From a virus, in IMG/VR virus record IMGVR_UViG_3300025687_007517, positions 1-64,000 of that record: a stretch of DNA of 64,000 nucleotides; one strand, 5' to 3'. Below, in pieces: positions 1 through 56,919 of the stretch. How positions within the stretch are numbered: the stretch's first letter is position 1; every line of letters begins with the position of its first letter. The translations under genes were made by a program, and so were the position numbers. The notes below the pieces were generated by a model that saw only the letters and a list, made by a program, of their open reading frames with translations, ran no database searches and was not told the DNA's origin.

Positions 1-2278
1 TACTCTTTTCCTCTGCAACAGCAAGGGACAAGTTTGCAGCAGGTATCAAGTCCCTTGCGGCAAATGCATTCTCAATAAACTTGCAAGAGGTCTTGTATTT
101 ATCTCCACAAGGAATCTCGTCAAGAATACCAATACGCTTGTTGTAAAGGTCAAGGTTGCGCTCTGTGTCTTTACACTCGTTTAACAAAGAAGTTAAGTTT
201 TCTTTTAGTTTTGTGTTTTGCTCGACTTCTTCTGTTAAAGCCTTTTCGTCAAACTGTTGAAGAAGTTCTTTTGCGTTCTCCAAAAAAAGACTTGACTCGC
301 CTATCTTTGTATGATAGTTGTTTATTTTTCTATCGATACTCTCGATAAGAAGCTCGGCTGTGTTTATCTGGTTTTCGACCAATGGCGCGTCAATAATCTC
401 TGCTGGAATAGAGTCGAGTTTGTCTTCTGTTTCTTTGAGGTCTGCTTTTAAGGTTTTTAGTTTTTGCTCCAACTCTTCGCAACGTTGGTCGTTTTGTTCG
501 ATAAGAACTAAAACCTCGTCTTGTTTATTTGCAATGGCTTCTTCATCTGCGTCGAGGTTAAAGGTTTCCAGCTTTTTGAGGTAGCCTTTTGTATCGGCAC
601 TTTCTTTCTTAGCCAGCTTAAACTTTTTATCAAAGAACTCCAAGTCAAGGAACTTTGCAAGAATTTCTTTGCGACGGGTTGAGCCCTCGTTAATAAAGTC
701 AAGTGCGCCTAGCTGTGAAGACATAGAGGTTGTTAAAAAGTCTTCCAGTGTGCCAAAGGTATGACGAATACGAGCGTCAGTTCCGTTACGGTCTGTGGAG
801 TCAAGTATTTCTTCCTCACCTGTGGCAAGGTCGATAACGCTAAACTTTACATCTGTGCGTGCCTCTGTGGTTGCTTGACCACGAAGTTTCTTTTCGTATT
901 TCTCACTTGTGCGCTCGACAGTGTATAGTTTTGTGCCTACTTGAATCTTTACTTTGCCTCGACCACCATTCTTTTTATTATTTACAATATCAACATTCTT
1001 ACGAACATTCTTTGATGTAGAGTTGTAAAGCGTGTAAAGTAGAGAATCTACCACGGAAGACTTACCTGAGTAGTTCTTACCAAAGATGCCTACAAGACCC
1101 CGAATGTTTTCAAAGTCTATTTTGTTTCCCTCGCCATAACAAAACAGATTGTCCCACTCAAGGTGTTTGAGCGACCAGTTGACATTGCGAGCAACTTCCT
1201 CGTTTTCCTCGGCTTCTTTGTTGAACCGCTCGTTGAGCGAGAAGACTTCTTTGAGGAGTTCTTCGCTTGGCTCGTAGTCTTTGAGGTAATCGCGGATAAG
1301 CTCTTGTTGGACTTGAACGTCCCGAAGATTTTGCTCCGTAATTTCGTCTGTGTGCGCCGAAGATAAACTTACCCCAGCCCTGTTAAGGAAAGTAAGACTT
1401 TCGGGCTTGAAGCGCGTCCTAACCACGTCTGTGGCTTTCCTAATAGTTTCCACTGGAAGCTTGGTATTTGCTACAACACGAACTCTTGCACCGAGTGGTA
1501 TTTTTGTGTTTTTTGGCACTCTGCCTTTTGCTGTAAGCTCAATAGTGATAAAGGGCTTTGGGTTTCTAAAAGTGTGGAGTTCTACCTTAAAGTCATCCTT
1601 ATTATCGATAGTCCAAAGCAGGTAGCCTTTGTCCAGTTCTTCTGCGTGGTTTTGCTGGACTGTGCTGCCAACATAACGCACTCGCCCTTCGTCGTCAAGG
1701 ATTTGATTGGTTTTGTGAATATCGCCAAGCATGGCATAGTCAAAACCCTCAAAGATAGAAACGTCGTTCTCGCCGTGCTCCATAACCCAACCAAGAGAAG
1801 TCTCGCAGCCAGAGATAGAACCGTGATAAAGAGCAATATTAATTTTATCTTTTCTCGTCGGCTTAACCCAGTTCTCTGGGTCGAACACGGAAAGAACGTT
1901 AAACACAATATTTGTGTCCCACAGGGTCTCACCGGAGTCTTTAAGAAGGTGAATATGCTTGTGGTTGAGCGCAGTCACCAAAGGCGTGATGGCATCTTGA
2001 CGTGCTGTGTTTCTCAGGTTGCCGTCATGGTTGCCTGGAATAATAATAAGTGGGGCAATATCGGCAAGGTTTTTGAGAAAGTCTGTGGCGAGGTCAAAAT
2101 ACTCTGGCGAAAGGTTGACCTTTGTGTGCGCCAAGTCTCCACAATGAACAATACAGTCTGGCTTTTGTTTGCGTAGAGACTTATACATTTGTGCGAACAC
2201 ATCACGGTATTCTTTGTGGTATTTTAGGTTCCGTATATGGGTGTCACTAATGTGGGCAATTTTGTAGTTTAACTTCAT
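1..2278 (-). CDS. Fused Mre11 nuclease-Rad50 ATPase (gp47-gp46-like), partial
   Basis: One uninterrupted frame runs from ATG 2278 off the left edge (759 codons, read codon by codon without a stop). The first ~360 residues are an Mre11/SbcD/gp47 metallophosphoesterase: D12-x-H14 (SDTH), GD48, GNHD (N83-H84-D85), YHG and GDIH. The chain then continues into a Rad50/SbcC/gp46 ATPase: Walker A GKNYSGKS at 400-407, Q-loop SSQLG near 522, a charged coiled coil, and a C724/C732 pair (CGDKYKTSC) that looks like a zinc hook. The second ATPase half (signature, Walker B) must lie outside the window. In T4 the nuclease and ATPase are separate subunits that process DNA ends for recombination-dependent replication; here they are joined. 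Primase lies 8 bases upstream. Confidence 0.93.
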   Translation of the reverse strand, partial: MKLNYKIAHISDTHIRNLKYHKEYRDVFAQMYKSLRKQKPDCIVHCGDLAHTKVNLSPEYFDLATDFLKNLADIAPLIIIPGNHDGNLRNTARQDAITPLVTALNHKHIHLLKDSGETLWDTNIVFNVLSVFDPENWVKPTRKDKINIALYHGSISGCETSLGWVMEHGENDVSIFEGFDYAMLGDIHKTNQILDDEGRVRYVGSTVQQNHAEELDKGYLLWTIDNKDDFKVELHTFRNPKPFITIELTAKGRVPKNTKIPLGARVRVVANTKLPVETIRKATDVVRTRFKPESLTFLNRAGVSLSSAHTDEITEQNLRDVQVQQELIRDYLKDYEPSEELLKEVFSLNERFNKEAEENEEVARNVNWSLKHLEWDNLFCYGEGNKIDFENIRGLVGIFGKNYSGKSSVVDSLLYTLYNSTSKNVRKNVDIVNNKKNGGRGKVKIQVGTKLYTVERTSEKYEKKLRGQATTEARTDVKFSVIDLATGEEEILDSTDRNGTDARIRHTFGTLEDFLTTSMSSQLGALDFINEGSTRRKEILAKFLDLEFFDKKFKLAKKESADTKGYLKKLETFNLDADEEAIANKQDEVLVLIEQNDQRCEELEQKLKTLKADLKETEDKLDSIPAEIIDAPLVENQINTAELLIESIDRKINNYHTKIGESSLFLENAKELLQQFDEKALTEEVEQNTKLKENLTSLLNECKDTERNLDLYNKRIGILDEIPCGDKYKTSCKFIENAFAARDLIPAANLSLAVAEEKS

Positions 2279-2286: not shown

Positions 2287-3213
2287 CTAAACGCAGGCAA
2301 CCTGCATAGCCAAAAGGTTATCTGGGTCTACCCAGGTGGCGTTTTCTTTTCTTTCTTGGAACTGTCCTCGGGTCATTTCACCTACATCGTCGTATCCTGA
2401 AATGTCTACTTTGTAAACATCTACATCATATTGTAGCAGTTTTCGCATAATTTTGTAAGCCTTTGAGTCGGCATCTGGGTCAAGGGCGAAATAGACTGCG
2501 GTATCGTTATGAACAATACTTTGGAATAACTTGCTTTCTTCTCGCAGGGTTGAGCCAAGAATAGGCACAGCGTTTTCACCTGCGATGATGGCGTCGAACA
2601 CACCTTCTACTAAAATAATTTCTTGGGAAAAGTCGAGGAACAGTTCGTTGAAAATAATGTCTTTGCTTGCATCGGGGTTGCGATACTTTGCCCAAGAACC
2701 TTTGTAGGTTCGTGCGATAAAGAAGTTTGGGTCACCGTCTTTGTTGAAAGATGGGATAATAATGCGGTCTTTAAACTCGCCCCAAGGACAGTAGCCTATT
2801 TTCCAAAACAGTATCTCGTCCATTGTGATGCCGCGCTTTGCGAGATAATGTCGGGCTGGAAGAGAAGAGTGGGGTAGGTTGTTCTTGCCAAGAAAAATAT
2901 AATCTTTTGGAAGCTCAATAACCTGCTCTACTTCTTCTCCTTCCTCGCCAAAAAGGTCGTCGAAGTTGGTTAGGTCTACATCGGGGGTGAGTTCCAACCA
3001 GCGTTGTTTGTCGGCAAATGTGGCAAAGCGGCGAACAAGACGGAAGATAGACTTGCCCGAATAGTTGCAGTGCCAACACTGGAACTTGTCTTTGTCGATG
3101 TTGACAGATAGTTTGTTGTTGTGGTGCTTACAGTTGGGGCAATGAAACAAACGCTCCCCACCGCTTTTGCGAAAGTCGCCTAATGTTCTGCGGAGGATAG
3201 AGACTTTTTCCAT
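2287..3213 (-). CDS. DNA primase, DnaG-type zinc ribbon plus TOPRIM
   Basis: A 308-residue primase that would make RNA primers for lagging-strand synthesis. It has an N-terminal zinc ribbon (C25-x2-C28 and C46-x2-C49; HCPNC and CWHC) and a TOPRIM domain from about residue 195 (LVEGVFDAI, then ALDPDAD). This is the T7/DnaG plan, shorter than bacterial DnaG and without a helicase domain. I chose ATG 3213; an upstream TTG at 3243 is in frame but would add ten residues before the conserved start. It overlaps the RuvC-like gene by 34 bases. A candidate sigma70 promoter lies about 80 bases upstream inside that gene. Confidence 0.88.
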   Translation of the reverse strand: MEKVSILRRTLGDFRKSGGERLFHCPNCKHHNNKLSVNIDKDKFQCWHCNYSGKSIFRLVRRFATFADKQRWLELTPDVDLTNFDDLFGEEGEEVEQVIELPKDYIFLGKNNLPHSSLPARHYLAKRGITMDEILFWKIGYCPWGEFKDRIIIPSFNKDGDPNFFIARTYKGSWAKYRNPDASKDIIFNELFLDFSQEIILVEGVFDAIIAGENAVPILGSTLREESKLFQSIVHNDTAVYFALDPDADSKAYKIMRKLLQYDVDVYKVDISGYDDVGEMTRGQFQERKENATWVDPDNLLAMQVACV

Positions 3214-3716
3214 ACTGACCAACCTGCTTTTGCGATAACCCAACTGTCTGCTTTGTCATATGACTCTGGACGTGGGTTGCCCTTTGTCGTGTATTGTATA
3301 TCAAAAGTGGGGTCGTTGTCAAGAACAAATTGTAGAACAACGGGTTTTGCTTTTGTGCCACGGGGAACTTTGATGCCTACGGCTCGTCTTGCTTCGCCTG
3401 CGGTTAGGTATTGTGGCTGGGCTCCAAAAAGGTTGTAGGTTATCCAACTAACGACTCCGTTGAATCTTTGTAGCGCTGCCATGGTCTTGGCAGAAGAGCC
3501 ACCGGAGTTGAAAAACATAAACGGTTGCTCAATAAAAACTTCGGTTATTTTAACCTCGCTTTTAATGGTTGTCAAGTATTCTTTTATTTTTTCTGCCTTG
3601 ACAAAAAAGTCTTTATGCTTGCGGAGGTCTATTGCTGAACAAAGTACAACATCTCCGTTGGTGTCTATTACAGACACACCTGTGATGGACGTTGAAACGT
3701 CAAGTGCTAATATCAT
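3180..3716 (-). CDS. RuvC-like Holliday junction resolvase
   Basis: A 178-residue RNase H-fold nuclease of the RuvC family, expected to cut four-way junctions during recombination and packaging. Acidic active-site candidates sit where expected: D6 (LALDVS), E63 (FIEQP) and D154/D157 (YDKADSW). It sits beside the primase and Mre11-Rad50 genes, so the three look like a replication/recombination module. No Shine-Dalgarno sequence precedes the ATG, but a TATAAT lies 6 bases upstream, so the transcript may be leaderless. Confidence 0.85.
   Translation of the reverse strand: MILALDVSTSITGVSVIDTNGDVVLCSAIDLRKHKDFFVKAEKIKEYLTTIKSEVKITEVFIEQPFMFFNSGGSSAKTMAALQRFNGVVSWITYNLFGAQPQYLTAGEARRAVGIKVPRGTKAKPVVLQFVLDNDPTFDIQYTTKGNPRPESYDKADSWVIAKAGWSVWKKSLSSAEH
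3293..3322 (-). promoter_or_regulatory. Candidate sigma70 promoter for primase
   Basis: On the minus strand: TTGACA (3322-3317), 18-base spacer, TACAAT (3298-3293). It lies inside the RuvC-like coding region about 80 bases before the primase start. It could be a chance match within codons. Confidence 0.4.
3547..3575 (-). promoter_or_regulatory. Candidate sigma70 promoter inside the ruvC-like gene
   Basis: Minus strand TTGACA (3575-3570), 17-base spacer, TAAAAT (3552-3547). It would drive primase with a leader of about 330 bases. The closer promoter at 3293-3322 makes this one less likely to matter. Confidence 0.25.
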
Positions 3717-5854: not shown

Positions 5855-6796
5855 TTAAGCGGTCTTCTTTATGAATCGTAAAGCAATGTCTACAGAAAAA
5901 CCAGTGTTACCACCAGTTACTCTCATAATTGTATCAATGTACTTGTATGTTTCTCCATCAATTGGCGCTGTTGAGCCAAATTGATTAAACAAAGCCTCAG
6001 AGGTTCTAAGGTTTGTAGAAGCTTTGAATTTAAACTGCGCTCGTCCCTGGAATGGACCGGCGAGCGCTGAGTCGTTGGTAGAGGAGTCTGCGCTGGTGGC
6101 GTGTGGAGTAATTGCGTTTGTTAGAACATAAGTTGCAACCTGATCGTCGTCTAAGAAATCAAAGTTTTGTTCTTCGCTATTTCCATTTCCCGACACCAGA
6201 ACAAGTGAACCAAGTCTGTTGTCTAGTTCAACAATTAGTTGAGTTTCTTGTAAATCAACGTCTACCGATTGTCCTTTTGGTACATTAGGACTGTCGATGC
6301 CGAAGTCTAATCTAACGGTTGCAGTAGCGTCAGTTGGCTTAAGACCGTTAAAAACGCCGGTTTGATTGCCGGGGTCGGTGCCAAAAATCGCACCATTGTT
6401 AATAGTGTTATCATCTACACAAATGGTGTAAGCAGAACCAGACCCTGGGAGGGTGAATAGCCCGTTTGTGCCCTTTTGGTTTGGCTTGATAACAGGAAGA
6501 TACAATAGGTCATTTCTAGAGTAAGATACAAGACGGTGTTTAAGAAGCGATGTGTTGTTTGTAAAAGCCTCTAAAACTGGTGTTTGGAGAATGTCCAAGT
6601 CTGCAAAAGCAGAGCCGCTTGGGTGCGCTCCAGAAGGATTGTTAGAGTTTCTGTAAAGCCTGTAGTTAATCTCATCATCACCAAGAGCAAACTTAGTAAT
6701 TTTAAAGGAGCCATCTCCCTTTGCTAAACGCATTCTACCTGTATCTGTTAAGACTGCATCTAAAATAATGTCACCGCTGTTATCTAAAAAAGCCAT
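5855..6796 (-). CDS. Tail/baseplate structural protein, family B1
   Basis: A 313-residue protein. Its N-terminus reads FLDNSGDIILDAVLTDTGR followed by LAKGDGSFKITKFALGDDEI. The same pattern (FLD...LT..G...AKG.F.....F.DDDI.Y) begins the gene at 13112-14032, so the two share an N-terminal domain. I recall this N-terminal type from uncharacterised marine phage structural proteins, but its role is not known to me. The C-terminal half has a jelly-roll-like composition without clear motifs. It lies in the tail block, 14 bases after the 956-aa gene. Confidence 0.75.
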   Translation of the reverse strand: MAFLDNSGDIILDAVLTDTGRMRLAKGDGSFKITKFALGDDEINYRLYRNSNNPSGAHPSGSAFADLDILQTPVLEAFTNNTSLLKHRLVSYSRNDLLYLPVIKPNQKGTNGLFTLPGSGSAYTICVDDNTINNGAIFGTDPGNQTGVFNGLKPTDATATVRLDFGIDSPNVPKGQSVDVDLQETQLIVELDNRLGSLVLVSGNGNSEEQNFDFLDDDQVATYVLTNAITPHATSADSSTNDSALAGPFQGRAQFKFKASTNLRTSEALFNQFGSTAPIDGETYKYIDTIMRVTGGNTGFSVDIALRFIKKTA

Positions 6797-6810
6797 TTAT
6801 GTACCTCTTC

Positions 6811-9681
6811 CTAATTAGACTTGAGTTTTGAAAAATTCGCTAAAAGCGATTCAAGGGTTTGTTTATCGAGTTTATTATTTTGTATTTTATCAACAATAGC
6901 CTCGATTAACTCCGTGTTAACCCTAAACTCCTCTTCATTTGTAAGTAGTTTGCTAGCTACTTTTATATCTACATCAAGTAAATTTGATAGCTCAACAAGG
7001 TCAGAACCAAAGAACCCTTTTGATTTTAAGTTCTTCAAGTTTTGAGCACTGCTTTGTCCCGTCTTGTCAATCGTCACCAGTTTTGGAAAAAAGTTTAAGT
7101 CAATTGCTCTTCCGGTTGATTTTGATTTAATACGCACTTTGTAGAACATGTCTGGGTCAAAGGGGTCAATGTTCTTGTCGCCAATCTTAATCTGTTGAAA
7201 GTTTAATTTCTGTGCTTGGTCAAGAGCCGTCTTTGCAGGTTGTAAGTTCGGCTGTATTGCTTGCTCGCTAAATCCTACTGAAATGATGCCATTGGATTTC
7301 GCTGTTGTTGGCTGTGGAGCAGGTGCAACCTCGCTTGGGAAAGAATACTCTTTCAACTCTGCGGTATGAATCTCGTCTTCTTGAGTCACAGATAGCTCAA
7401 TAATCGGGCTTGGGTTAGATACAAGACCGTGCGCGTTGATTGCCCTAAAGCAATAGTAATAAGTTTTGTTTGGTGTTATCGAATCAATAAATCCAGTATT
7501 TTCGTTTTTGTTGATGGTTGTAACAAGCGCAGAGCCGAAGTCCGCGTAGTTTAACGGAGCCACTTCAAGGCGAAGAGCCTGATAAGAAACGATTGGAGAG
7601 CGACTAGAGAAATCAAACTCGTTCAATAGGGAGCTTAAGATTGAAATAGCTGCGGCTTCGCCGCCTATAGCGCTAACATATGCTTGTTCTGATGTTACGA
7701 AATTAACAAGGTCGTCAAAAGATAACTCGCCGTCGGCAAACGCACCTTCATAATCTTTCTTGTGGGCTTTAACAACCTTTTGTAGAGTTAAAAGATCTTC
7801 GTTAAAAATAGCAATAGGTTTTGTTTTGATTCCAGAAACGTTGTCGTTGAAAACTATTTTTACTTTCTCGGCATCAAAGCGACTTGGTAAAACAGTGACT
7901 GTTGGATAAACAGGGGGCTTGTCAAAAGCTATAACACCTGTTATTTCTTTCAGTGGCACTTTCATAATACGCAAGTCTGGGTAGCTTAGGAATCTGCTTG
8001 TAATGGTGTCTAGATTTGCCCCAGATTTAGTTTGGTTTTCTAGTGGCTTTACACCTGTGCCAACGCTAATAACGTGGCAGAAGAACCTATAGACGTACTC
8101 TGTGTTGTAGTTGATACCCGCATCAATAACTTTGATAATGTCTTCTTTGTTGGAAGAGGCTGGTATAATGTATTCCTTCTCGAATTCTGGGATTGTTGTG
8201 CCCTCGGGAGAAGTGACCACTCTGTGTCTTTCAACGGAGTAAGCAAGAACTTCAACATAGTTCTTTAACGGTGATGGTCGCAGTTTGCCCTTTTCATCTA
8301 GAATTCTTTGACCAATGGTTAAGAAGTTTCTATCAACGAACTCTTTCATCTTAGCTTGGAAAATGTATGAATCAAAACCGTTTAAAGAATTGTTTTCTTC
8401 AAACATACGGTAAATAAAATCTGTTCTGTTGATGTTTGACTGTGTAGCCACATCAAATGATATGTTGTTGTAAGTTGGGTTTATTGCAGCTAAGGCGTTT
8501 GAAAAATCGTTTTGACCATACATCACCAAATCTTTAATTTGAGAGTCCTGGCTGTTGGGCAAAGCCTTTGGGGGAATAAATTGAGCTTGCTTAAGAGCAT
8601 ACTTTAATGTCTCTCCAACGCACGGTGCCCTTCTAATGTTGTAGAGTCCTCTACCTAAAGAGGTAAATGTTGCGTCTGTGCTTAAAAACAAAAACGGACT
8701 CGTATTGACGGGGAACTTTTCTCCATCATCGGACAATGAAAAGAAAGGCTTTGTGGCTCTGTCAAGAACGTTGTAAATAAAAGTCTCGTAAATGTTGAGG
8801 TCTTTTAGCAATTCTTTAAATTCGTTGTTCTGTACTTCTGGGGTTATGTTAAAGTTGCTTACGATTTCTGCATTAAATGGAGTAACCGATTGACGCTCGT
8901 TGGTAAAATCAATAAGCTCTTTATCTAGGCTTAAAAATGACACATTGTTGATTTTAAAGTTTCCAACGCCGCCATTCCCAAAGCCTGCGGCAACAGCGTA
9001 TGCGCTGGCGTATTCACCGTCAGTTTTGTTGTAATTCTTTTGCGACAAGAAGGGCTTGTACATACCTGCTATTTTTTTCTTGTCTAAAAACGATACCTCG
9101 ATGGGATCGCTAGAAGTAAAAAGCTTTGTGTATTCTTTAAATGTTTTAAAAGAGTATTCGTTATTGGCAACAGTGTCTGTGTCCTTGTATTTTAGCTTAA
9201 CAGAGTTGTAAGCATAAAAGTCACTTGGTCTAACAACTTGTTGTGTTTGAAATAGGGTGCCGGAATCTAGACTCTCTAGACTATCAACATAGAAATTGTA
9301 ATTTGCAAACGCATCACACACTACTGAGCCATTTGTTTGAGTTATGTCAAAAAAGTGAAGGTTCTGTGGTAGGAACTGCGCTGTTTGAGGTGTCACCGAG
9401 CTATTGTTTGTTATTTCAATCTCTTCTTGGCAAACACTTCCTAGAAAGAAGTTTCTAGGCTCTTTCTCTAGCTGTTGATATACGGAGCTTTCTGGACTCC
9501 AATCAAAAACCTTTTTGTACGATAAAACTTGGTTATTGGCAGTTTTTAAAACAATGCCATTGGTTTCACTTTTATCACTGTCAAGCTGGTAAGACAGCTT
9601 TACAACATCTGGATAGTTGGGGTATAAGCCGGGAGTATCCCCTGAGCGCTGATTTCCCGTAAATGTGTAGGTTTTCTTCAT
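6811..9681 (-). CDS. Large tail structural protein (956 aa) with FN3-like segment
   Basis: A 956-residue protein with no family I can name. Around residues 680-770 a segment ending in YYYCFRAINAHGLVSNPSP has the hallmark of a fibronectin type III strand (YxFRAxNxxG). The last ~60 residues are Leu/Lys/Asn-rich and probably helical (NLLDVDIKVASKLLTNEEEF region). There is no signal peptide. It is flanked by other large tail genes with 14-base gaps, so a baseplate or fibre-connector role is likely but unproven. Confidence 0.7.
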   Translation of the reverse strand: MKKTYTFTGNQRSGDTPGLYPNYPDVVKLSYQLDSDKSETNGIVLKTANNQVLSYKKVFDWSPESSVYQQLEKEPRNFFLGSVCQEEIEITNNSSVTPQTAQFLPQNLHFFDITQTNGSVVCDAFANYNFYVDSLESLDSGTLFQTQQVVRPSDFYAYNSVKLKYKDTDTVANNEYSFKTFKEYTKLFTSSDPIEVSFLDKKKIAGMYKPFLSQKNYNKTDGEYASAYAVAAGFGNGGVGNFKINNVSFLSLDKELIDFTNERQSVTPFNAEIVSNFNITPEVQNNEFKELLKDLNIYETFIYNVLDRATKPFFSLSDDGEKFPVNTSPFLFLSTDATFTSLGRGLYNIRRAPCVGETLKYALKQAQFIPPKALPNSQDSQIKDLVMYGQNDFSNALAAINPTYNNISFDVATQSNINRTDFIYRMFEENNSLNGFDSYIFQAKMKEFVDRNFLTIGQRILDEKGKLRPSPLKNYVEVLAYSVERHRVVTSPEGTTIPEFEKEYIIPASSNKEDIIKVIDAGINYNTEYVYRFFCHVISVGTGVKPLENQTKSGANLDTITSRFLSYPDLRIMKVPLKEITGVIAFDKPPVYPTVTVLPSRFDAEKVKIVFNDNVSGIKTKPIAIFNEDLLTLQKVVKAHKKDYEGAFADGELSFDDLVNFVTSEQAYVSAIGGEAAAISILSSLLNEFDFSSRSPIVSYQALRLEVAPLNYADFGSALVTTINKNENTGFIDSITPNKTYYYCFRAINAHGLVSNPSPIIELSVTQEDEIHTAELKEYSFPSEVAPAPQPTTAKSNGIISVGFSEQAIQPNLQPAKTALDQAQKLNFQQIKIGDKNIDPFDPDMFYKVRIKSKSTGRAIDLNFFPKLVTIDKTGQSSAQNLKNLKSKGFFGSDLVELSNLLDVDIKVASKLLTNEEEFRVNTELIEAIVDKIQNNKLDKQTLESLLANFSKLKSN

Positions 9682-42632: not shown

Positions 42633-42661
42633 ATTTTATCACACAACTAAAACATTGTTAA
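42633..42661 (-). promoter_or_regulatory. Candidate promoter for neuB-like copy 1 (leaderless)
   Basis: Minus strand TTAACA (42661-42656), 17-base spacer, TAAAAT (42638-42633), ending 6 bases before ATG 42626. Transcription would start at or next to the start codon, and no ribosome-binding site is visible. Confidence 0.4.
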
Positions 42662-43609
42662 CTTGTGTAATGGCAGGTTCAGAATCTTGTGATGTATTTT
42701 TTCAAGAAACGGAAGAACCTGTGAGGATTTGTAGTACCTCATCTTATGAAGCATAGGATAGTGTCTAGATAGCCCCATAATCTCAATCGTTTTATTGGCG
42801 TCTTCACACAAAGTTGTAGCAAAATAATAAGAAGATTTGTTGTCGTGTGGTAACAGTGTTTTAGAAGAAGCAAGTTTTTCATAGTTTAATTTTCTTTGCA
42901 ACAACAGGTGTTCATATCTTTTTATCTGAGTCAGACCAATTGTAGCATTTAGATTATTCATGTAGAATTTAAATCCATCAACAGATATATTGTATGAATT
43001 GCCCTGCTGTTCTCTCCCAAAGTTTCTATACCGCAAAAAATAGTCGTTTGCGCGGGAGTCGTCGGTAGAAATCATACCACCGTCTGATGTACATATCGGC
43101 TTATATGGATGAAACGAGAAGAAAACAAAGTTACAATTAATAGTGGGAGTCACGCAATGAGCGCTGTCAACGACCACAATTTCGTCTCCCACAAGGTCAA
43201 AGTCGAGAATTTTACTGACGCCGCCGTACAACACCGGCATGACCACAACCTTATTTTTTGTGGGCTTTCGTATTTTTTTATAATGTTTTGAACAGAACTG
43301 CAAATTTTCCTGTACATCTACAAAATAAAGATTGTGACCAAAATGTTTAGCTGCCCATGCAGGAGATGTGAAACCCAAAGAAGTTGTGTAAACATCGCAT
43401 ATACCATGTGTGTCGCGTAGATAAGAATATATCATAAAAGCGGCGGCTGATGCTGAATTTGTTGATGCATTGTACTTTTTGTTTGAAAAATTAGAGAAAT
43501 GGTTTTCAAATAAACGAACGTTTTCTCCAAAGCCCAACTCTCCAGAAGATATAACTTTTGTTATCTGATTGATATCAGCATCGTTTATTTTAGTTTCAAA
43601 CAGTTTCAC
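42647..43609 (-). CDS. DegT/DnrJ-family aminotransferase (PseC/LegC-like)
   Basis: A 320-residue PLP aminotransferase. The lysine expected to bind PLP lies in FSFHPYKPICTSDGGM, and VDSAHC supplies the cofactor-stacking region. These enzymes install the amino group on 4-keto-sugars made by the dehydratase next door. GTG 43609 overlaps the upstream stop as GTGA, the usual coupling here; an in-frame upstream start at 43639 would overlap by 34 bases. It is slightly short for the family (~370-390). Confidence 0.82.
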   Translation of the reverse strand: MKLFETKINDADINQITKVISSGELGFGENVRLFENHFSNFSNKKYNASTNSASAAAFMIYSYLRDTHGICDVYTTSLGFTSPAWAAKHFGHNLYFVDVQENLQFCSKHYKKIRKPTKNKVVVMPVLYGGVSKILDFDLVGDEIVVVDSAHCVTPTINCNFVFFSFHPYKPICTSDGGMISTDDSRANDYFLRYRNFGREQQGNSYNISVDGFKFYMNNLNATIGLTQIKRYEHLLLQRKLNYEKLASSKTLLPHDNKSSYYFATTLCEDANKTIEIMGLSRHYPMLHKMRYYKSSQVLPFLEKIHHKILNLPLHKLTMF

Positions 43610-44592
43610 GAGCAAACCAAACCTTTGTTTATTAAACAAATCAACTTTTCTTTATCACACTGAACCCATAAAGATGAGTTGAATTCTTGACCATTATATT
43701 TGTTGAATTCTTGATAACTCTTTGAGGTGTATTGTGGTCTAACTTGAAGGAGGTTTGTCCCTGCAACTTCATAAGTAAATGGCAGTTCGGTCTTTGCCAA
43801 CATGTCCTCGTGCAGCTTTTCTCCCGGTCTAATACCACTGATCTTGGTTTTCACGTTCGTGTTTAAAATTTCCGCAACAGCTTCGACGCATTGAGGTAAC
43901 GTATAAGAATCGATTTTTGGGATAAACACCTCTCCCCCAATTGCATTTTCTAGAGAGCTAAGAACGGTGTCAACTGCATCCTCAAGAGTAAACAAAAAGC
44001 GTGTCATTTCTGTTGAAGTCACATTAACGGTTTGACCTTTTTTAATTGCTGATATCCATAGGGGAATAAACGAACCACGAGACGCAATAACGTTTCCATA
44101 TCTTACAGATGCGAAGACAGTGTAATTTGAATTATAGTCGTAATTCGTAAAAATCCTTTCTGCAATAAACTTTGACGAACCATAAACATTTACAGGTTGA
44201 CAAGCCTTATCTGTTGATATAAGGACACACTTGCTCACGCCTGCGTGTAAAGAGGAAATTGCAACATTTTCAGAGCCAACAATGTTTGTTTTTACACACT
44301 CATCTGGGTACATCTCCATATCGTCAACTCTCTTGAGTGCTGCTGTATGAATTACATAGTCTGGTTTATGGAGCATCATAGATGTTTTTAGTTTTTCTAA
44401 ATCTCTTACATCTCCAATAACCCTTTTTACTTCTTTGTCTGCACCGAAATACAGTGCCTGTTTACCCTCATCTCGACTATAGATAATAATTTTACAACCA
44501 AGACTCTTCAATCTCTTAATTAGCGCACGCCCAAGAGAACCTGTTCCACCAGTGATAAAAATTTTCTTATTGTTATAAAATTTGTTATTCAT
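43606..44592 (-). CDS. NDP-sugar 4,6-dehydratase (PseB/CapD-like)
   Basis: A 328-residue extended SDR enzyme: NAD-binding ITGGTGSLGRALIKRL (residues 12-27), HTAALKRVDDME, LISTDKA, and YGSSKFIAE supplying Tyr-x3-Lys. This fits UDP-GlcNAc 4,6-dehydratases that begin the pseudaminic or legionaminic branch. RPGEKLHEDMLA is a family hallmark. It is followed by the aminotransferase with a GTGA overlap, which strongly suggests consecutive steps. Confidence 0.88.
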   Translation of the reverse strand: MNNKFYNNKKIFITGGTGSLGRALIKRLKSLGCKIIIYSRDEGKQALYFGADKEVKRVIGDVRDLEKLKTSMMLHKPDYVIHTAALKRVDDMEMYPDECVKTNIVGSENVAISSLHAGVSKCVLISTDKACQPVNVYGSSKFIAERIFTNYDYNSNYTVFASVRYGNVIASRGSFIPLWISAIKKGQTVNVTSTEMTRFLFTLEDAVDTVLSSLENAIGGEVFIPKIDSYTLPQCVEAVAEILNTNVKTKISGIRPGEKLHEDMLAKTELPFTYEVAGTNLLQVRPQYTSKSYQEFNKYNGQEFNSSLWVQCDKEKLICLINKGLVCS

Positions 44593-45269
44593 TTATTCCT
44601 CATTTTATAAAGGCTTTCACACATATTAAACTGCCACTCATAATCAATGTCCAGACTCTCTCTCTCTGCCATCGACCATAACTCTATATCATTTGGTTTA
44701 TTAAAATCTCCCATCCATACGCCCTGACCAACCTTCTCCAAGGAGCCAGCGTAAAGACAGTGTGCCGCCTCTTTAATGATCTTTGCTGTCTTGGTGTTCA
44801 TAACATCTTCTTTCAGTGGTGTTAGAATAGTACCGTCTTCATCCCAGAAATAATTCTTTTTGTCCATCACGGCAAACATACCAGCTTTTTCTGACTTGCA
44901 GTAATCAAAGTAAAAATTTTCAATTGTCTCTTTTGTAAGCATTGGAGCGCAAGCGTTTACCATTACAACATACTTATGTGGCAGCTTATCCCACCACTCA
45001 TACATTTCTGTCATTGGAGTGCCCTCAGACAACGCAGACTTTTCAGTTCTTTCATAAACATTAAATGGATACTTTGAACATAATTCTTTAAGTTCTGGTT
45101 CATAGACAGAGCACCAAACATTTTCATTTGGGATTTTTGAATCTTGTAATTTTTGCAAAGCAATGTCCATTAGCGTGGTATTTGCAAAAGGACGAATCAT
45201 CTTTTGTGGGCATCTTTGAGAAGAAAGCCTTGCTTGAATAATAACTGCAACGTCCTCTACTTTTTTCAT
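44589..45269 (-). CDS. CMP-nonulosonic acid synthetase (NeuA-like), copy 2
   Basis: A 226-residue paralogue of the copy at 40741: IIQARLSSQRCPQKMIRPF, VNACAPMLTKETI, EAAHCLYAGSLE and DIDYEWQF. The two proteins align along their whole length, so they come from a duplication or from separate acquisitions of related cassettes. It overlaps the dehydratase by four bases. Substrate preference cannot be read from sequence. Confidence 0.82.
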   Translation of the reverse strand: MKKVEDVAVIIQARLSSQRCPQKMIRPFANTTLMDIALQKLQDSKIPNENVWCSVYEPELKELCSKYPFNVYERTEKSALSEGTPMTEMYEWWDKLPHKYVVMVNACAPMLTKETIENFYFDYCKSEKAGMFAVMDKKNYFWDEDGTILTPLKEDVMNTKTAKIIKEAAHCLYAGSLEKVGQGVWMGDFNKPNDIELWSMAERESLDIDYEWQFNMCESLYKMRNK

Positions 45270-45271
45270 TT

Positions 45272-46108
45272 TTATCCTCTCAGTTTTTTACGAAATGGAA
45301 GTTCCGTATCGGTGACTCCAATTGTCCCGTCTCCAAGAGCCTGCTCAAGTTCTCTAACACCCCTTACAAGCTTAATAAGCCCTTGTGGTTCTACAGAAGA
45401 CAATTGGTCTGTTCCCCACATTGTTCTATCAAGAGTGATGTGTCGTTCAATAATCTCTGCGCCCAACATAACTGTAGCAACAGAAGTGCCAAGACGGAAT
45501 TCATGTCCACTGTAGCCAACCTTGCAGCCATAACGGTCTTTAAGGGTTTTAATGCATGACAAATTTAACTCGTCCACCGGAGCGGGGTAACTGCTGTTGC
45601 AATGCAATAAGGCAAATTCTGTGCCCTCTTCTCTCATCCACTCAACTGCTTTATCAATCTCCTCTACGGTGCTCATACCAGTAGAAACAATTAATTCTTT
45701 GTTTCTCTCGGCAGACCACCTAGAGCTAGCCCTAATCAACTCTTCGTTTGTAAGCATGGCTGAAGGGATTTTAATAAAGGGGATTTCGTAATTTGATAAA
45801 AATTCTAAACTGTCTAAATCCCATGGAGATGCAGACCACTCAACGCCCTTCTCTTTGCAGTATCTATCAATCTCGTCGTACTCTTCTTTCTCAAACTCTA
45901 CCTTGTATTTGTACTCAAGGTAAGTCATCGTGCCCCATGGCGTCTCTCTCATTACATTTTTTTGATGCTCTGGAACACAAACGTCTGGATTTCGCTTTTG
46001 AAACTTGACTGCATCACAGCCAGCTAATGAGGCTACATCGATAAGTCTTTTTGCGTTTTCTAGCGAGCCGTTGTGGTTAATACCAATTTCTGCGATTATG
46101 TATGTCAC
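45272..46108 (-). CDS. NeuB-like synthase, copy 2 (lacks SAF domain)
   Basis: A 278-residue synthase with the catalytic barrel motifs IIAEIGINHNGSLENAKRL, DAVKFQKRNP, LHCNSSYPAP and GYSGHE. It ends soon after the barrel (PFRKKLRG) and lacks the C-terminal SAF domain present in the 340-aa copy and in most NeuB proteins. It may act with a partner or use another closing element. It overlaps the glycosyltransferase gene by four bases and is two bases from the synthetase. Confidence 0.82.
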   Translation of the reverse strand: MTYIIAEIGINHNGSLENAKRLIDVASLAGCDAVKFQKRNPDVCVPEHQKNVMRETPWGTMTYLEYKYKVEFEKEEYDEIDRYCKEKGVEWSASPWDLDSLEFLSNYEIPFIKIPSAMLTNEELIRASSRWSAERNKELIVSTGMSTVEEIDKAVEWMREEGTEFALLHCNSSYPAPVDELNLSCIKTLKDRYGCKVGYSGHEFRLGTSVATVMLGAEIIERHITLDRTMWGTDQLSSVEPQGLIKLVRGVRELEQALGDGTIGVTDTELPFRKKLRG

Positions 46109-48099
46109 AATTTCTCCCGTGGAATGCCTTCATAAAGGCTACTAATGTCAGATACTATTGTAAGCGAAATTCCATTTTCTTTTAACCAATAAAACATCTC
46201 TTTTGTTGCTGCTCTAGTGGTTTCTATTTCCCAATCAAGAATGTCGCCGCGATTCACAAGACCTTGTGTATTACCGTAAAAGTGCTTGTAATTGTCTTCA
46301 TTAACTTTATTATAAGTCAAATCCCATCCCAATACAACTATTTTTTTAACACCAAGATGAACCGCAGTTTGTATTACAGTTTCATACATTATGCCTGGAC
46401 CACATGGTCTTTGGGCTTCCAGCGGGTAATCTTCAAACTTTTTTGTAACAGCTAAAAACTCATTGTCTATTTCTGTTCTTATTGGAATCTTGAAAAATAA
46501 GTCGTCATGCTGTAAAGCTGACCATCTCATACCCTTGTCGTAATTTGAACTTCCTACGACAATTGGGTTTGATTCTTTATAATCGTAATGCACACCCGCG
46601 TTAGGGCTTGGCAGGTTTGAACAATTAAAGAAGTGAAAGTCTACCACTTCTGGACAATACTCGTAGGCTTGCTTAACTGCGAAAACAAGCTTATTAGATA
46701 ATTTTTCTTTTAACTGTTCTCTGTTATAGTCCTTCAATGAGGGACCACAGTTTAAGATGTAGCAAGTGTCGCCCTTATAAGAGTTCTTTAAAAGCGATAC
46801 TTTTTGCTCCAGACTTTCCATGGAGGAAAGCTTAGATTTCAATCGATTAGTAGTGCTTTTTGGAGAAGAGATAAGCGGTGTAGCTTTCTCAAAACTAAAA
46901 GAGTCTGTAAGGATTCTTTTTATGTTGTCCTTGCCACAATGGTCACTTAGCTTTTTGGAGTTGTTTTTTGCAATTGCAGCTAACTCTTCTCTATTGTCAA
47001 ACGCATACCTCATTTTTTCCATCAAGGACAACACGTCAGGCTCATAATAGTTTGAACCACATTCATAGTTTGGAAGTTTATAGCACGGAGCCAAATGGCA
47101 ACCAAACATCAATGCGTTTGGCTCTAGGTAATCTGCATGACCACCCTTATCTGGAACAATTACCGGCTTGTTAAACGATGCAGCCTCGGCAATAGTTAGC
47201 CCAAATCCTTCGCCTCTTGTTGCTAGAACAAAACAATCACTAACATCATAGAGATAATTTATTTTTTCCCTTGACAAAACATCTACAAGGACATAAACAG
47301 GGCAGGCGGGTGGTGTGTTTTTTTCATCCGTAAAGACGCCTGCTTTAATTGCTTTTATTTGGTCCGCTATTTGCTTAAACGCTGTTGAACCCTCTTTGCT
47401 AGTATTGTCAACGTATGTTTTAATCACCAAAGCAACATCTGTCTGGCTCTTAAATTCTGAAAAGTATGCTCTCAACAATGGCTCAAAGCCCTTGCGGTGA
47501 CCCCATTGACTCATTGCAAAAAAAGTAAACTTCCCATCGAGTGAAGGGAGTTTTACAGCCTTCTTGGCTGTATTTTCAACTGGACTGATGTAGTGCGGCA
47601 AGAGTTGAGTTTCGATACCAGTTTTTTTGTAGGATTCACAATTCCAACGCGATGGAACAAAATTAATCTTTGTGTTGTGCTTCTCTAGCACCCCTTTCCA
47701 ATACGAAGGTATTTTGTCTGTTTCCCAAGTGGTAATACTGTGATTCTCGCTACAATTATCAATAAGAGTCTTAAAGAGGCGAAATGACTCCTTAAGTTGT
47801 GGAGGCAACCTATCTAAGTTTTCCATCCATGTCATCACCGGAGGAGGCAAATGCCAAAGAACAGAATAATCACTTTCTTGAATTTTGTCTACTATAGCCT
47901 TTGTTTTAATCTCGTGCTTTTCAATTAAGTCTAGCACAGAGTCAGGTGCAGAATTTTTTTGTTCAAAATTTATTGACAGGGTAAAAAGATTGTATCCGCT
48001 TTCCCTCTCTAATTCGGCTAGAATTTCCAAATAACCTCGTGCAGCGGAGGCATAACCCGAAGCATCTCGAAATTGCCCAACAAATACTAAATTTTTCAT
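46105..48099 (-). CDS. Glycosyltransferase fused to DUF115-like domain
   Basis: A 664-residue two-part protein. Residues ~1-410 are a GT-B glycosyltransferase (GT4 type; ATRGEGFGLTIAEAASFNKP near 300 carries the EX7E donor motif). Residues ~450-664 are a second domain opening CYILNCGPSLKDYN and later KIVVLGWDLTYNKV, the DUF115/sialyltransferase-like motif also seen at 37612. One chain may carry two sugar-transfer activities. It overlaps the next gene by four bases. Confidence 0.8.
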   Translation of the reverse strand: MKNLVFVGQFRDASGYASAARGYLEILAELERESGYNLFTLSINFEQKNSAPDSVLDLIEKHEIKTKAIVDKIQESDYSVLWHLPPPVMTWMENLDRLPPQLKESFRLFKTLIDNCSENHSITTWETDKIPSYWKGVLEKHNTKINFVPSRWNCESYKKTGIETQLLPHYISPVENTAKKAVKLPSLDGKFTFFAMSQWGHRKGFEPLLRAYFSEFKSQTDVALVIKTYVDNTSKEGSTAFKQIADQIKAIKAGVFTDEKNTPPACPVYVLVDVLSREKINYLYDVSDCFVLATRGEGFGLTIAEAASFNKPVIVPDKGGHADYLEPNALMFGCHLAPCYKLPNYECGSNYYEPDVLSLMEKMRYAFDNREELAAIAKNNSKKLSDHCGKDNIKRILTDSFSFEKATPLISSPKSTTNRLKSKLSSMESLEQKVSLLKNSYKGDTCYILNCGPSLKDYNREQLKEKLSNKLVFAVKQAYEYCPEVVDFHFFNCSNLPSPNAGVHYDYKESNPIVVGSSNYDKGMRWSALQHDDLFFKIPIRTEIDNEFLAVTKKFEDYPLEAQRPCGPGIMYETVIQTAVHLGVKKIVVLGWDLTYNKVNEDNYKHFYGNTQGLVNRGDILDWEIETTRAATKEMFYWLKENGISLTIVSDISSLYEGIPREKL

Positions 48100-49337
48100 A
48101 GTACCATTACTTGTTCTTCTGGTTCTTCAATTCCCAGACTTTCAACAAACTGACTGTTTAGCTTGCTTTCTTCAAAGGTTTCTAAAACCCACTTTTGTAA
48201 AGATTTAGAAAGCCCCTGATAAACATGATGTTCGTTTTTCATTTTACGAAGCGCCATCTTATACGAGCCCTCTCTAGCAAACGCCCATTGTGAGTTTGGT
48301 TGAATAACCCCTTCCCAATGTGCTTCTCGTTGTACAGGAAGAACATCAAAGTCTACTTTTAAGAATTTTCCTTTGTTTTTCTCTTTGCCTTTCTTATCTT
48401 TCTCGGGCATGAACAAGAAGTCACACTGCCCCGACCAACCAATAGTGATAATTGGCAATCCAGCAATAGCAGCATCAAAGAGCGGAAGACCATATCCCTC
48501 GCCGTGAGCAATGTTAATAAAGGCTTTAATATTTTCGTGTCTGTAAAGCCCCTGCATCTCCGCTTCGCTCATATAACCGTGAAGGAGTGTCACAGAACAT
48601 TTGCGGTCCTTGTAGGTGGCAAGGAGCGCCTGCAAACGCTTGTGTGTAAAGTCTCGGTCAATGGTGCAATTCTTGTAGGAGTTCGTCTTTACAACAAGAC
48701 CAACTTCTCGGTCGATGTTCTCTTCGACAAACCAGCGAATAGCATTCTCAAAGTTCTTTCTTGGACCCCACTGACTGACTAAAAGATAGTTAAAGTCGTG
48801 CGGGAGGTCGAGTTCTACCTCTGTGGGGTTTTGTGGGCGAACAGGGTAGTTTACGACCTCTACCGGCTTCTCTAGCTTATAAGGGAATTTATTACCGTGT
48901 TGGTCCTGTGCTTCCACCACAGTATTGACAAAAACGTCCTTAGAGTGGTTGCTAACAACGATTATCTTGTCCATAACCTCGTTACATTTTTGTAACCACT
49001 GTGGGGCGACCTTTGTTGTCTCAATACCGGCTGTGTAGCCAATATTAACAGGTGCCATTTTCTCAAACTCGTTGGGGATGGTAACCTGAAGGGAAATATC
49101 AAAAGCAACTCTGCCTTGGTTGGCTTGTAGTAATTGTGCTGTTTTTTGAATTGTTTTAATTAGCCACTCTCTTTCTTCATCATCTTCAATAATGTGGTTT
49201 GACTTTCCCCATTCCAAATTCATAAGATAAATGTCAAAAAGGTCTGGACGTGAACGCAGAGCCCTAAGAGCAAAACGTGTTTGCTCGCCATATCCAGTTT
49301 GTGATAGGGCTGGACCCTTTACAATAATCTTCTTCAT
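48096..49337 (-). CDS. Glycosyltransferase family 4
   Basis: A 413-residue GT-B enzyme with N-terminal glycine-rich KGPALSQTGYGEQTRFALRA and the C-terminal donor-site HGEGYGLPLFDAAIAGLPII. The second acidic residue of the usual EX7E is Asp here. ATG 49337 overlaps the upstream stop as ATGA; an in-frame start at 49382 would lie inside the upstream gene. The acceptor is unknown. Confidence 0.82.
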   Translation of the reverse strand: MKKIIVKGPALSQTGYGEQTRFALRALRSRPDLFDIYLMNLEWGKSNHIIEDDEEREWLIKTIQKTAQLLQANQGRVAFDISLQVTIPNEFEKMAPVNIGYTAGIETTKVAPQWLQKCNEVMDKIIVVSNHSKDVFVNTVVEAQDQHGNKFPYKLEKPVEVVNYPVRPQNPTEVELDLPHDFNYLLVSQWGPRKNFENAIRWFVEENIDREVGLVVKTNSYKNCTIDRDFTHKRLQALLATYKDRKCSVTLLHGYMSEAEMQGLYRHENIKAFINIAHGEGYGLPLFDAAIAGLPIITIGWSGQCDFLFMPEKDKKGKEKNKGKFLKVDFDVLPVQREAHWEGVIQPNSQWAFAREGSYKMALRKMKNEHHVYQGLSKSLQKWVLETFEESKLNSQFVESLGIEEPEEQVMVL

Positions 49338-50596
49338 ACTGATAGTTGCTCCCATGCCCTGTATCCCTTGCGGGTATCCCAAGAGCCATTTTCTTCAAGA
49401 ACCTCGTCCATAAACTCTACCCAGCCTTTTTCAAGCTGCTCAAACGAGTAGTTCTTCTCGACGTGCTTTCTACCTTGTTCTCCGAGCTTACGACGTGCTG
49501 CATGACTCTTTGACCACATCTCATAAAGAGCTTGAACAAAATCGTCCTCGTTGATTCTATCCTCGCGGATAAAAGGAATTTCTTGTGAGCCAATAATGGC
49601 TTTTGATGCGGGTTCGATCCCAACACCAAATTCTTTTTTGCCGTCTGTTATTTGTTCTTGCAGACCACCTGTTTTATTCACAATAATAGGCGTGCCACAA
49701 GCTAATGATTCTAGTGTGGCGAGACCAAAGCCCTCGGCGTCTGAAATGTTTACTGTTACGTCGCAAGCATTATAAAGTCTTGCAAGGGCTGCGGCTGGCA
49801 TTTTTTGTCTGCTAAACTTTACCTGACCGTCTGTTAAGCCTAGCTCATTAATAATCGCATCCAAGTTCTGACCGTGGGGGTCTTTAGTGTCAGTGTGCAT
49901 GATAAGCACAGCCTGATCATCCCCAACACGGTCCAAGAATTTTTTAAACCAAAAAATAAGTGAGCCGGATTGTTTACGTCTCGCGTTTCTGTTATTCCAA
50001 AAAATTGTAAACTTATCAGCAGCATCGCCAAAGTTTTCTTGTCTAAATTTCTGCCTTTCTTCTTCTGGGAAGAGTGAAAAGTCGGGTGGCACAGCGTGAG
50101 GAATGTACTTGCGCTTTACCTCTGGTGCTACCGTAGCAACAATATCATCAGTAACTTTGCTGATGGTTGCGATAGCATCGTTAGAAAGGTAGAACTTTCT
50201 ATTGAACTTTGGGTAAGGGTAGTTGTCCCAAACGTGGTAGTATACCAAAGGACAGTGTGAACGAATCTCTTCTTCGATTTCCCACAACCAGCCCCAGAAA
50301 CGTGGATCGGTCATAATCCAAACTGCGTCTGGTCTTTCTACCCAAAGTGCTTCACGAATTATGTGAACGTCTCCATATCCTTTAATTGGGTAAATGATTA
50401 AATCATCTCCCCATTCTCGGGTCTTTTGCGGCTGGTAGTTCTCATGTTGAATAGCCCCACCGAAGCACAGGAACTTATATCGTCCGGTCTTTAGTAGGGC
50501 TTCAACGAAGTATTTGGTTTGTGTGCCGACACCCGAAGGTGACATTGGGTGGTCAGATAAGACCAATATTTTTTTCTTTTGTATGTCCTCTGGCAT
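49334..50596 (-). CDS. Glycosyltransferase family 4
   Basis: A 420-residue GT-B glycosyltransferase: N-terminal LSDHPMSPSGVGTQTKYFVE and C-terminal DAEGFGLATLESLACGTPII with an intact EX7E motif. This is the first gene of the glycan block in transcriptional order, followed by two more transferases with four-base overlaps. The protein is likely cytoplasmic and may modify phage DNA, virion or host surface; the sequence does not say which. Confidence 0.85.
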   Translation of the reverse strand: MPEDIQKKKILVLSDHPMSPSGVGTQTKYFVEALLKTGRYKFLCFGGAIQHENYQPQKTREWGDDLIIYPIKGYGDVHIIREALWVERPDAVWIMTDPRFWGWLWEIEEEIRSHCPLVYYHVWDNYPYPKFNRKFYLSNDAIATISKVTDDIVATVAPEVKRKYIPHAVPPDFSLFPEEERQKFRQENFGDAADKFTIFWNNRNARRKQSGSLIFWFKKFLDRVGDDQAVLIMHTDTKDPHGQNLDAIINELGLTDGQVKFSRQKMPAAALARLYNACDVTVNISDAEGFGLATLESLACGTPIIVNKTGGLQEQITDGKKEFGVGIEPASKAIIGSQEIPFIREDRINEDDFVQALYEMWSKSHAARRKLGEQGRKHVEKNYSFEQLEKGWVEFMDEVLEENGSWDTRKGYRAWEQLSV

Positions 50597-55588: not shown

Positions 55589-55601
55589 TTTGCCTCCACG
55601 G

Positions 55602-55674
55602 TGCCGGAAGAGGGACTTGAACCCCCAACCTACGCATTACAAGTGCGTTGCGCTACCAGTTGTGCTATTCCGGC
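55602..55674 (-). tRNA. tRNA-Thr(TGT)
   Basis: A 73-base cloverleaf on the minus strand: acceptor GCCGGAA/TTCCGGC, anticodon stem ACGCA/TGCGT around loop CTTGTAA (anticodon TGT, codon ACA), T-loop GTTCAAG. The base after the discriminator reads CCG, so CCA is not encoded. The 5' end overlaps the end of a 35-aa reading frame. Confidence 0.92.
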
Positions 55675-55772
55675 TTTTTCTTTTTATTTTTCTTTTTAAG
55701 TTTTTTGAAGAAGGACTCCACTTTTAAAATGAAGTCCCTCATCGCTTCGTATTCGGGGCGACCCTTATACAT
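55665..55772 (-). CDS. Very basic 35-aa peptide
   Basis: ATG 55772 follows the stop of the histone-like gene by one base. The product (YKGRPEYEAMRDFILKVESF, then a Lys-rich end with KKLKKKNKKKK) would bind nucleic acid by charge. Its stop codon lies in the 5' end of the tRNA-Thr gene. Short, so real translation is likely but not certain. Confidence 0.45.
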   Translation of the reverse strand: MYKGRPEYEAMRDFILKVESFFKKLKKKNKKKKPE

Positions 55773-55773
55773 A

Positions 55774-55962
55774 TTAATCGTCAGTATTGCGAACTTCAAG
55801 AACCTGCTTACGAAGGGTCTTTAGCTCATTGACAGCAAACTGTGCAGTCTTACGCACACGAGTTCCAGCAGCCTTGTTGCCAGCGTCGGTCTTCTGGGCA
55901 TCAGCAAGAGCCTGTGTGAGTTGGTCTACAACAGTTTGTAGTGTGGTTGTTACTGTACTCAT
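55774..55962 (-). CDS. Histone-like protein (Hc1 type)
   Basis: A 62-residue protein whose C-terminal part GNKAAGTRVRKTAQFAVNEL resembles the small Hc1/histone-like proteins of bacteria and phages that bind DNA. ATG 55962 overlaps the DUF3310 gene by four bases. Confidence in the family is moderate, since only one segment matches. Confidence 0.55.
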   Translation of the reverse strand: MSTVTTTLQTVVDQLTQALADAQKTDAGNKAAGTRVRKTAQFAVNELKTLRKQVLEVRNTDD

Positions 55963-56288
55963 TTTTTCTCCTTTTCTAATTTATCAATTAAATAATCCAG
56001 ATACCATCTGGCTTTCTTCAAGTCGCCAAGGCGCGAACTCTTGTGCCTTGAACGAACAACATACTTGACAACATTGCCTTCAATGAAGTCAAGCCCCCAA
56101 TCAAGAATAGCATCGATTGCTTCGATTTTACCTTGGTTGTAGTGGGCTGGGTGGTCAACTAGTTCTGCATATGCTTTTAGCTGACTGCGTTCTGTGTTTT
56201 CTGCGTATCCACCATTTGGTAGTTTCTTTTCTTTTTCTGGCATATCAAATGGGTCTACTTTGTCTTGTGAATAAGTTTTTAAAAACAT
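55959..56288 (-). CDS. DUF3310 protein
   Basis: A 109-residue protein with the DUF3310 core: DHPAHYNQGKIEAIDAI, GLDFIEGNVVKYVVRS, LGDLKKARWYLDYLI. T7 gp1.7, a nucleotide kinase, carries the same domain, which hints at nucleotide metabolism beside dUTPase and thymidine kinase. ATG 56288 is two bases from the tRNA-Glu CCA end. Confidence 0.78.
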   Translation of the reverse strand: MFLKTYSQDKVDPFDMPEKEKKLPNGGYAENTERSQLKAYAELVDHPAHYNQGKIEAIDAILDWGLDFIEGNVVKYVVRSRHKSSRLGDLKKARWYLDYLIDKLEKEKK

Positions 56289-56289
56289 T

Positions 56290-56364
56290 TGGTACTCCCG
56301 AGGGGAATCGAACCCCTGCCACCGGAGTGAAAATCCGGTATTCTAACCGTTAAACTACGGGAGC
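56290..56364 (-). tRNA. tRNA-Glu(TTC)
   Basis: Cloverleaf on the minus strand: acceptor GCTCCCG/CGGGAGT, anticodon stem CCGGA/TCCGG, loop TTTTCAC (anticodon TTC), T-loop GTTCGAT. CCA is encoded at 56292-56290. Confidence 0.94.
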
Positions 56365-56367
56365 ATT

Positions 56368-56577: not shown

Positions 56578-56603
56578 TAGCCTATTATACCGCTTTTGAG
56601 CGC

Positions 56604-56705: not shown

Positions 56706-56706
56706 T

Positions 56707-56917: not shown

Positions 56918-56919
56918 TT

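What the first reader, a model, noticed from the sequence alone, without database searches (positions are those of the whole stretch)
1..2278. Mre11 nuclease and Rad50 ATPase in one polypeptide
In T4 and cellular systems the nuclease (gp47/Mre11/SbcD) and ATPase (gp46/Rad50/SbcC) are separate genes. Here the nuclease domain (~1-360) continues without a stop into the Rad50 N-terminal ATPase half (Walker A at 400-407), then a coiled coil with a Cys pair. I read all 759 codons and found no stop. A fused complex fixes stoichiometry and may change how the coil and hook work.
Basis: partly seen in the sequence, partly recalled or inferred. Interest (0 to 1): 0.7.

Follow-up and report, generated by a model that had tools for sequence, protein, structure and literature searches.

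The report
Phage Mre11–Rad50 fusion repair protein
This phage makes its DNA-break nuclease and the matching ATPase motor as one protein instead of two; the fusion is real and widespread in viruses, but this kind of fusion has been known since 2011.

Summary
On the minus strand, 2278..2 is one open frame of 759 codons that runs off the contig end: Mre11/SbcD nuclease, capping domain, helix-loop-helix, an 8-residue linker, then the Rad50/SbcC N-terminal ATPase half and a coiled coil up to the hook. It is not an assembly join. Independent IMG/VR contigs (97% nucleotide identity) carry the same gene complete: 1050 aa, with Rad50 signature, Walker B and H-loop in the same frame. Against the closest there are 55 synonymous and 1 nonsynonymous codon differences. 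101 of 106 related viral loci hold the fusion in one frame. Eleven large relatives plus Microcystis phage Mel-JY01 carry only the fused version and also a RecA-family recombinase. RuvC and primase genes usually lie upstream.

The kind is known: Yoshida, Claverie and Ogata (2011, PMC3175470) described Mimivirus R555 and twelve other fusions, argued that homologues abound in aquatic phages, and noted the same His-to-Asp change in nuclease motif V. Most likely function: a phage SbcCD/gp46-47 equivalent that resects DNA ends for recombination-dependent replication. New member of a known kind; low interest.

The parts
2..2278 (-). Fused Mre11(SbcD)-Rad50(SbcC) gene, 759 codons, cut by the contig end (complete in relatives: 1050 codons)
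1379..2278 (-). Mre11-type phosphodiesterase and capping domain (residues 1-300); motifs D12/H14, D48, N83-H84-D85, H152, G-D186-I-H188
   Evidence: Pfam Metallophos E 4.6e-13; 275 residues match S. aureus SbcD nuclease+capping domain, Z 24.8; motifs invariant
1205..1318 (-). Helix-loop-helix (residues 321-358) at the place of the Rad50-binding domain of Mre11
   Evidence: predicted helices 321-335 and 339-358; identity as Rad50-binding domain is inferred from position
1181..1204 (-). Linker (residues 359-366) between the nuclease part and the first Rad50 strand; R364, N365 and W368 invariant in 41 fusions
641..1180 (-). Rad50/SbcC N-terminal ATPase half (residues 367-546), Walker A GKNYSGKS at 400-407
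   Evidence: Pfam AAA_23; model residues 366/368-1050 match SbcC/Rad50 heads, Z about 31 (model of L003)
116..640 (-). First arm of the coiled coil (residues 547-721)
   Evidence: predicted helices
80..115 (-). Hook apex with Cys pair C724 and C732 (C-x7-C)
   Evidence: sequence; helix break at 722-732 in the model; Cys conserved
2..79 (-). Start of the returning coiled-coil arm; the rest (residues 760-1050) lies beyond the contig and is seen only in relatives such as L003
2287..3243 (-). DnaG-type primase gene directly upstream; homologue present in 76 of 77 fusion loci with at least 2 kb upstream
   Evidence: phrog_47 E 4.8e-40
3180..3716 (-). RuvC-like Holliday junction resolvase gene, overlapping the listed start of the primase ORF; homologue present in 69 of 77 fusion loci
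   Evidence: phrog_827 E 1.6e-9 and phrog_159 E 4.1e-9

Best explanation
A fused SbcD-SbcC (Mre11-Rad50) protein of a contractile-tailed phage. It most likely dimerises into the usual M2R2-like complex (two nuclease sites, two composite ATPase sites, two hooked coiled coils). The linker keeps each nuclease tethered to its own Rad50 in the place where the separate subunits already sit. ATP hydrolysis gates access of broken or hairpinned DNA ends to the nuclease; the resected 3' ends are used by the phage RecA-family recombinase for recombination-dependent replication and repair, with primase and RuvC from the same gene cluster in restart and resolution. Shown here: fusion, motifs, domain order, conservation, gene neighbourhood, lack of a second SbcC in twelve large relatives. 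Inferred: oligomeric state, resection activity, role in replication.
For: Both domains over curated cut-offs in one frame. Complete 1050-aa versions in independent contigs. 55 synonymous against 1 nonsynonymous codon difference to L003, with synonymous changes on both sides of the junction. 101 of 106 loci fused in one frame. Model: residues 366/368-1050 match E. coli SbcC and archaeal Rad50 heads at Z about 31; residues 5-300 match SbcD at Z 24.8. Helix-loop-helix kept, and the 8-residue linker is close to the 9-12 residues that Yoshida et al. give for spanning the ~28 A gap. Twelve of twelve large relatives have exactly one Rad50 domain, which is the fusion, and one RecA-family gene; none has a second phosphoesterase of this family except one extra 257-aa one in G007. 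Primase in 76/77 and RuvC in 69/77 loci.
Against: No experiment on any phage member was found in the papers searched. Motif V has Asp where canonical Mre11 has His (GDIH in 96 of 96), which could change metal use or activity. RecA was not found in the window's own 72.5-kb record, which is a fragment. pTM of the model is 0.49, so the relative placement of nuclease and ATPase parts is not established.
Confidence: 0.85

Rival explanations
1. The same enzyme, but its main job is degrading host DNA or cleaving hairpins/palindromes left by replication rather than making ends for recombination-dependent replication.
For: E. coli SbcCD cleaves hairpins, and T4 gp46/47 is annotated as required for host-DNA degradation as well as recombination.
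Against: Gene neighbourhood is primase and RuvC and large relatives carry RecA, which fits recombination-replication; the roles do not exclude each other.
Confidence: 0.3
2. Assembly join or missed frameshift between two separate genes.
For: The gene lies at a contig end and no reads were available.
Against: About 100 other contigs have the same single frame, two of them 97% identical to the window; purifying selection runs through the junction.
Confidence: 0.01
3. The Asp in motif V makes the nuclease inactive or a different phosphoesterase, so the protein is mainly a DNA tether.
For: GDIH stands in 96 of 96 fusions and GHIH in none; Mimivirus R555 has the same change.
Against: All other metal-binding positions (D12, H14, D48, N83, H84, H152, H188) are invariant in 41 fusions and Asp can bind metal; strict conservation argues for a working site.
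Confidence: 0.07
4. A defence or counter-defence SMC-like protein (Lamassu LmuB-like or similar).
For: Hits to LmuB (E 1.4e-21) and mad3 (E 4.9e-16).
Against: These match the shared Rad50/SMC-type ATPase region only; the nuclease half, the replication neighbourhood and the one-per-genome presence fit SbcCD.
Confidence: 0.02

Closest known systems
Mimivirus R555 type Mre11/Rad50 fusions (Yoshida et al. 2011, PMC3175470; top fold match: Tupanvirus 1379-aa protein A0A6N1NVE8)
   Same: Same domain order, nuclease then Rad50 with both ATPase halves; Asp in place of His206; linker of about the same length; homologues abundant in aquatic virus metagenomes, with phage primase genes on the same scaffolds
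   Different: R555 is 1351 aa with a longer coil; this one is 1050 aa in a tailed phage; about 20-22% identity to giant-virus members in the fold alignment
Microcystis phage Mel-JY01 protein WWT39521.1 (annotated 'AAA domain containing protein')
   Same: One-frame fusion of about 1067 aa, primase-like gene just upstream, RecA in the genome
   Different: 28% identity; hook is CKHCC, not C-x7-C
T4 gp47/gp46 and SPO1 gp21.3/gp21.9 (separate subunits)
   Same: Same two enzymes, nuclease gene upstream of the ATPase gene; in SPO1 a primase gene lies next to sbcC
   Different: Two proteins from genes separated by small ORFs; CxxC hooks; motif V with His
Bacillus phage 0305phi8-36 fusion
   Same: A phage Mre11/Rad50 fusion reported in 2011
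   Different: Reported to lack one P-loop segment and the capping/HLH part; record not held, so not checked here

Membership tests
Mre11/Rad50 (SbcD/SbcC) fusion proteins | Metallophosphoesterase and Rad50 ATPase in one frame, nuclease first | tested here: met
Mre11/Rad50 (SbcD/SbcC) fusion proteins | Rad50 C-terminal half (signature, Walker B, H-loop) in the same frame | tested here: met
   Met in relatives L003/L006, 97% identical in DNA; outside the contig for the window itself
Mre11/SbcD nuclease | Metal-binding motifs DxH, GD, GNHD, H, GHxH | tested here: met
   All present except the first His of GHxH, which is Asp in 96/96, as in R555
Mre11/SbcD nuclease | Capping domain and Rad50-binding helix-loop-helix | tested here: met
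   Capping: SbcD match over residues 5-300, Z 24.8. HLH: predicted helices 321-358; its contact with the coil was not tested
Rad50/SbcC | ABC head split by a long coiled coil with a Cys hook at the apex | tested here: met
   Head Z about 31; coil 547-902 with apex at 722-732; hook spacing x6/x7 in most, CxxC in some
Mre11-Rad50 complex | ATP-regulated nuclease activity on DNA ends, M2R2 assembly | not testable with these tools
   needs purified protein
Mimivirus R555 clade | Common descent with R555 rather than an independent fusion | not tested
   R555 sequence not held; only fold-level similarity to mimivirid fusions seen

The most novel reading that the evidence does not exclude
The conserved linker (R-N-x-x-W) and the long-spaced C-x6/7-C hook make these fusions a mechanistically distinct class, in which nuclease and ATPase are coupled in cis and the coil apex joins by a metal site or disulphide unlike the CxxC zinc hook.
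Probability: 0.08. Interest if true: 0.4.

Novelty: new member of a known kind. Interest (0 to 1): 0.18.

Why it matters
Modest. It confirms with complete genes what the 2011 study could only suggest from short metagenome reads: that R555-like fusions are common in aquatic phages, apparently replace the separate pair, and sit with primase and RuvC in genomes that carry RecA. A single-chain version of about 1050 aa could be a convenient object for structural work on how nuclease and ATPase are coupled.

Tried and rejected
Extending the contig leftwards: not possible, the window starts at base 1 of the record; near-identical contigs were used instead. A separate Rad50 elsewhere in the record: the family search found only the one AAA_23 match. 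Plasmid collection: only weak hits to phosphoesterases. Cellular genomes: four hits, all in MAGs; L113 appears to be the same contig as viral L043 (same 24,260-base length), L115 breaks off in a run of 100 N in a scaffold, so no clear cellular copy. The reported Bacillus phage fusion could not be checked, record not held. A tree with only three split phage pairs set them apart from the fusions at 100/99 support, but on very long branches, so it does not settle how often fusion arose. A hook unique to the fusions was rejected: split Moorella phage SbcC also has C-x7-C. Defence-system reading rejected as shared ATPase family.

Full report
What was checked. The finding is a single open frame on the minus strand, 2278..2, 759 codons, ending at the contig edge. 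The window is the first 64,000 bases of a 72,510-base virus record. Pfam finds the calcineurin-like phosphoesterase domain (residues 6-165) and the Rad50-type AAA_23 domain (375-621) in this frame, both above the curated cut-offs; PHROGs names the halves SbcD-like and SbcC-like.

Is it an artefact. A scan of IMG/VR with the 759-residue protein gave 23 loci. L003 and L006 have complete genes of 1050 codons in one frame, ending in the Rad50 signature (SGAEKT), Walker B (ICDEP) and H-loop (ITHID). Between window and L003 the 2,278 bases are 97% identical, with 55 synonymous and 1 nonsynonymous codon differences, of which 6 synonymous and none nonsynonymous lie in residues 341-420, around the junction. 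A second scan with an alignment found at least 587 stretches that encode relatives and kept the best 80. Over all 106 loci examined, 101 hold nuclease and Rad50 C-half in one frame; four others are cut by contig ends and one, LR756508, is interrupted by an insert. An assembly join is excluded for practical purposes.

Anatomy. An AlphaFold2 model of the L003 protein on an alignment of 41 sequences has mean pLDDT 82 but pTM 0.49, so the domains are usable and their relative placement is not. Residues 5-300 match the nuclease and capping domains of S. aureus SbcD (Z 24.8), and 366/368-1050 match SbcC and Rad50 heads (Z about 31). Two helices at 321-335 and 339-358 occupy the place of the Rad50-binding helix-loop-helix; residues 359-366 are the linker; the first Rad50 strand starts at 367. 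The coil runs from about 547 to 902 with its apex at 722-732, at the Cys pair. R364, N365 and W368, at the linker, are invariant in the alignment of 41 fusions. Motif V of the nuclease is GDIH in 96 of 96 unique fusions, with Asp for the usual His.

Hook. Of 96 unique fusions, pattern matching found C-x6-C in 61 and C-x7-C in 16; of the other 19, most have CxxC at the same place, some have a long-spaced pair in a slightly different context, and two gave no pair. T4 gp46 and SPO1 SbcC have CxxC, while the unfused Moorella phage SbcC has C-x7-C. The spacing is therefore not tied to the fusion.

Context. Directly upstream lie a DnaG-type primase and a RuvC-like resolvase. Among 77 fusion loci with at least 2 kb upstream, 76 have the primase and 69 the RuvC homologue. 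Eleven large IMG/VR relatives (127-204 kb) and Microcystis phage Mel-JY01 each have exactly one Rad50 domain, the fusion, and each has a RecA-family gene; one has an additional small phosphoesterase. The window also encodes a baseplate wedge protein, so the virus is probably a contractile-tailed phage. RecA was not found in the window's own, incomplete record.

How it most likely works. By family knowledge, Mre11-Rad50 is an M2R2 complex in which the Mre11 helix-loop-helix sits at the root of the Rad50 coil and ATP gates nuclease access to DNA ends. Yoshida et al. give a gap of about 28 A between Mre11 C-terminus and Rad50 N-terminus in the T. maritima complex, which 9-12 residues can span. 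The 8 linker residues here, nine steps between helix and strand, are close to that. So the fusion most likely keeps the canonical architecture and fixes one nuclease per ATPase. The probable role is end resection for recombination-dependent replication and repair, as for T4 gp46/47. This is inference from homology and neighbourhood; no activity was shown.

What is known. Yoshida, Claverie and Ogata (2011, PMC3175470) described Mimivirus R555 as an Mre11/Rad50 fusion and found twelve more in a Bacillus phage, bacteria including plasmids, and eukaryotes. They noted the same His206-to-Asp change, and concluded from metagenomes that R555-like genes are abundant in aquatic viruses, probably including phages, with phage primase genes on the same scaffolds. 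A fold search against viral models returns full-length proteins of this kind from Tupanvirus, Klosneuvirus relatives, Tenacibaculum phages and a Listeria phage. The present gene is a new member of that kind, complete in its relatives.

Verdict. Real, correctly read, ordinary in kind. What is added here is the complete gene in many phage genomes, the apparent replacement of the separate pair, the constant neighbourhood, and the observations on linker and hook.

Noticed in passing
L026 (LR756508.1) 6565-7595: The fusion gene of this 484-kb phage record is interrupted right after nuclease motif GDIHKRQ by about 1 kb holding a separate Cys-rich ORF of about 305 aa, looking like a homing-endonuclease insertion; no Rfam intron match.
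   Followed up: partly
L077 7720-7899; L092 4892-5071: A second, separate copy of the last 60 residues of the Rad50 C-terminus (55-57% identical to L003) lies about 0.8 kb downstream of an intact fusion gene.
   Followed up: no
window 80-115: Hook cysteines spaced C-x7-C (C-x6-C in most relatives), unlike the CxxC zinc hook; also seen in the unfused SbcC of Moorella phage MTATph1.
   Followed up: partly
window 42647-50596: Cluster with three glycosyltransferase-like genes, an aminotransferase and a nucleotide-sugar epimerase in a phage genome.
   Followed up: no
window 55600-56997: Four tRNA genes: Thr(TGT), Glu(TTC), Ile(TAT), Arg(TCT).
   Followed up: no
window 60652-61653: An ORF whose sequence reads like an adenylosuccinate synthetase (PurA/PurZ-like); judged by eye only, not tested.
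   Followed up: no
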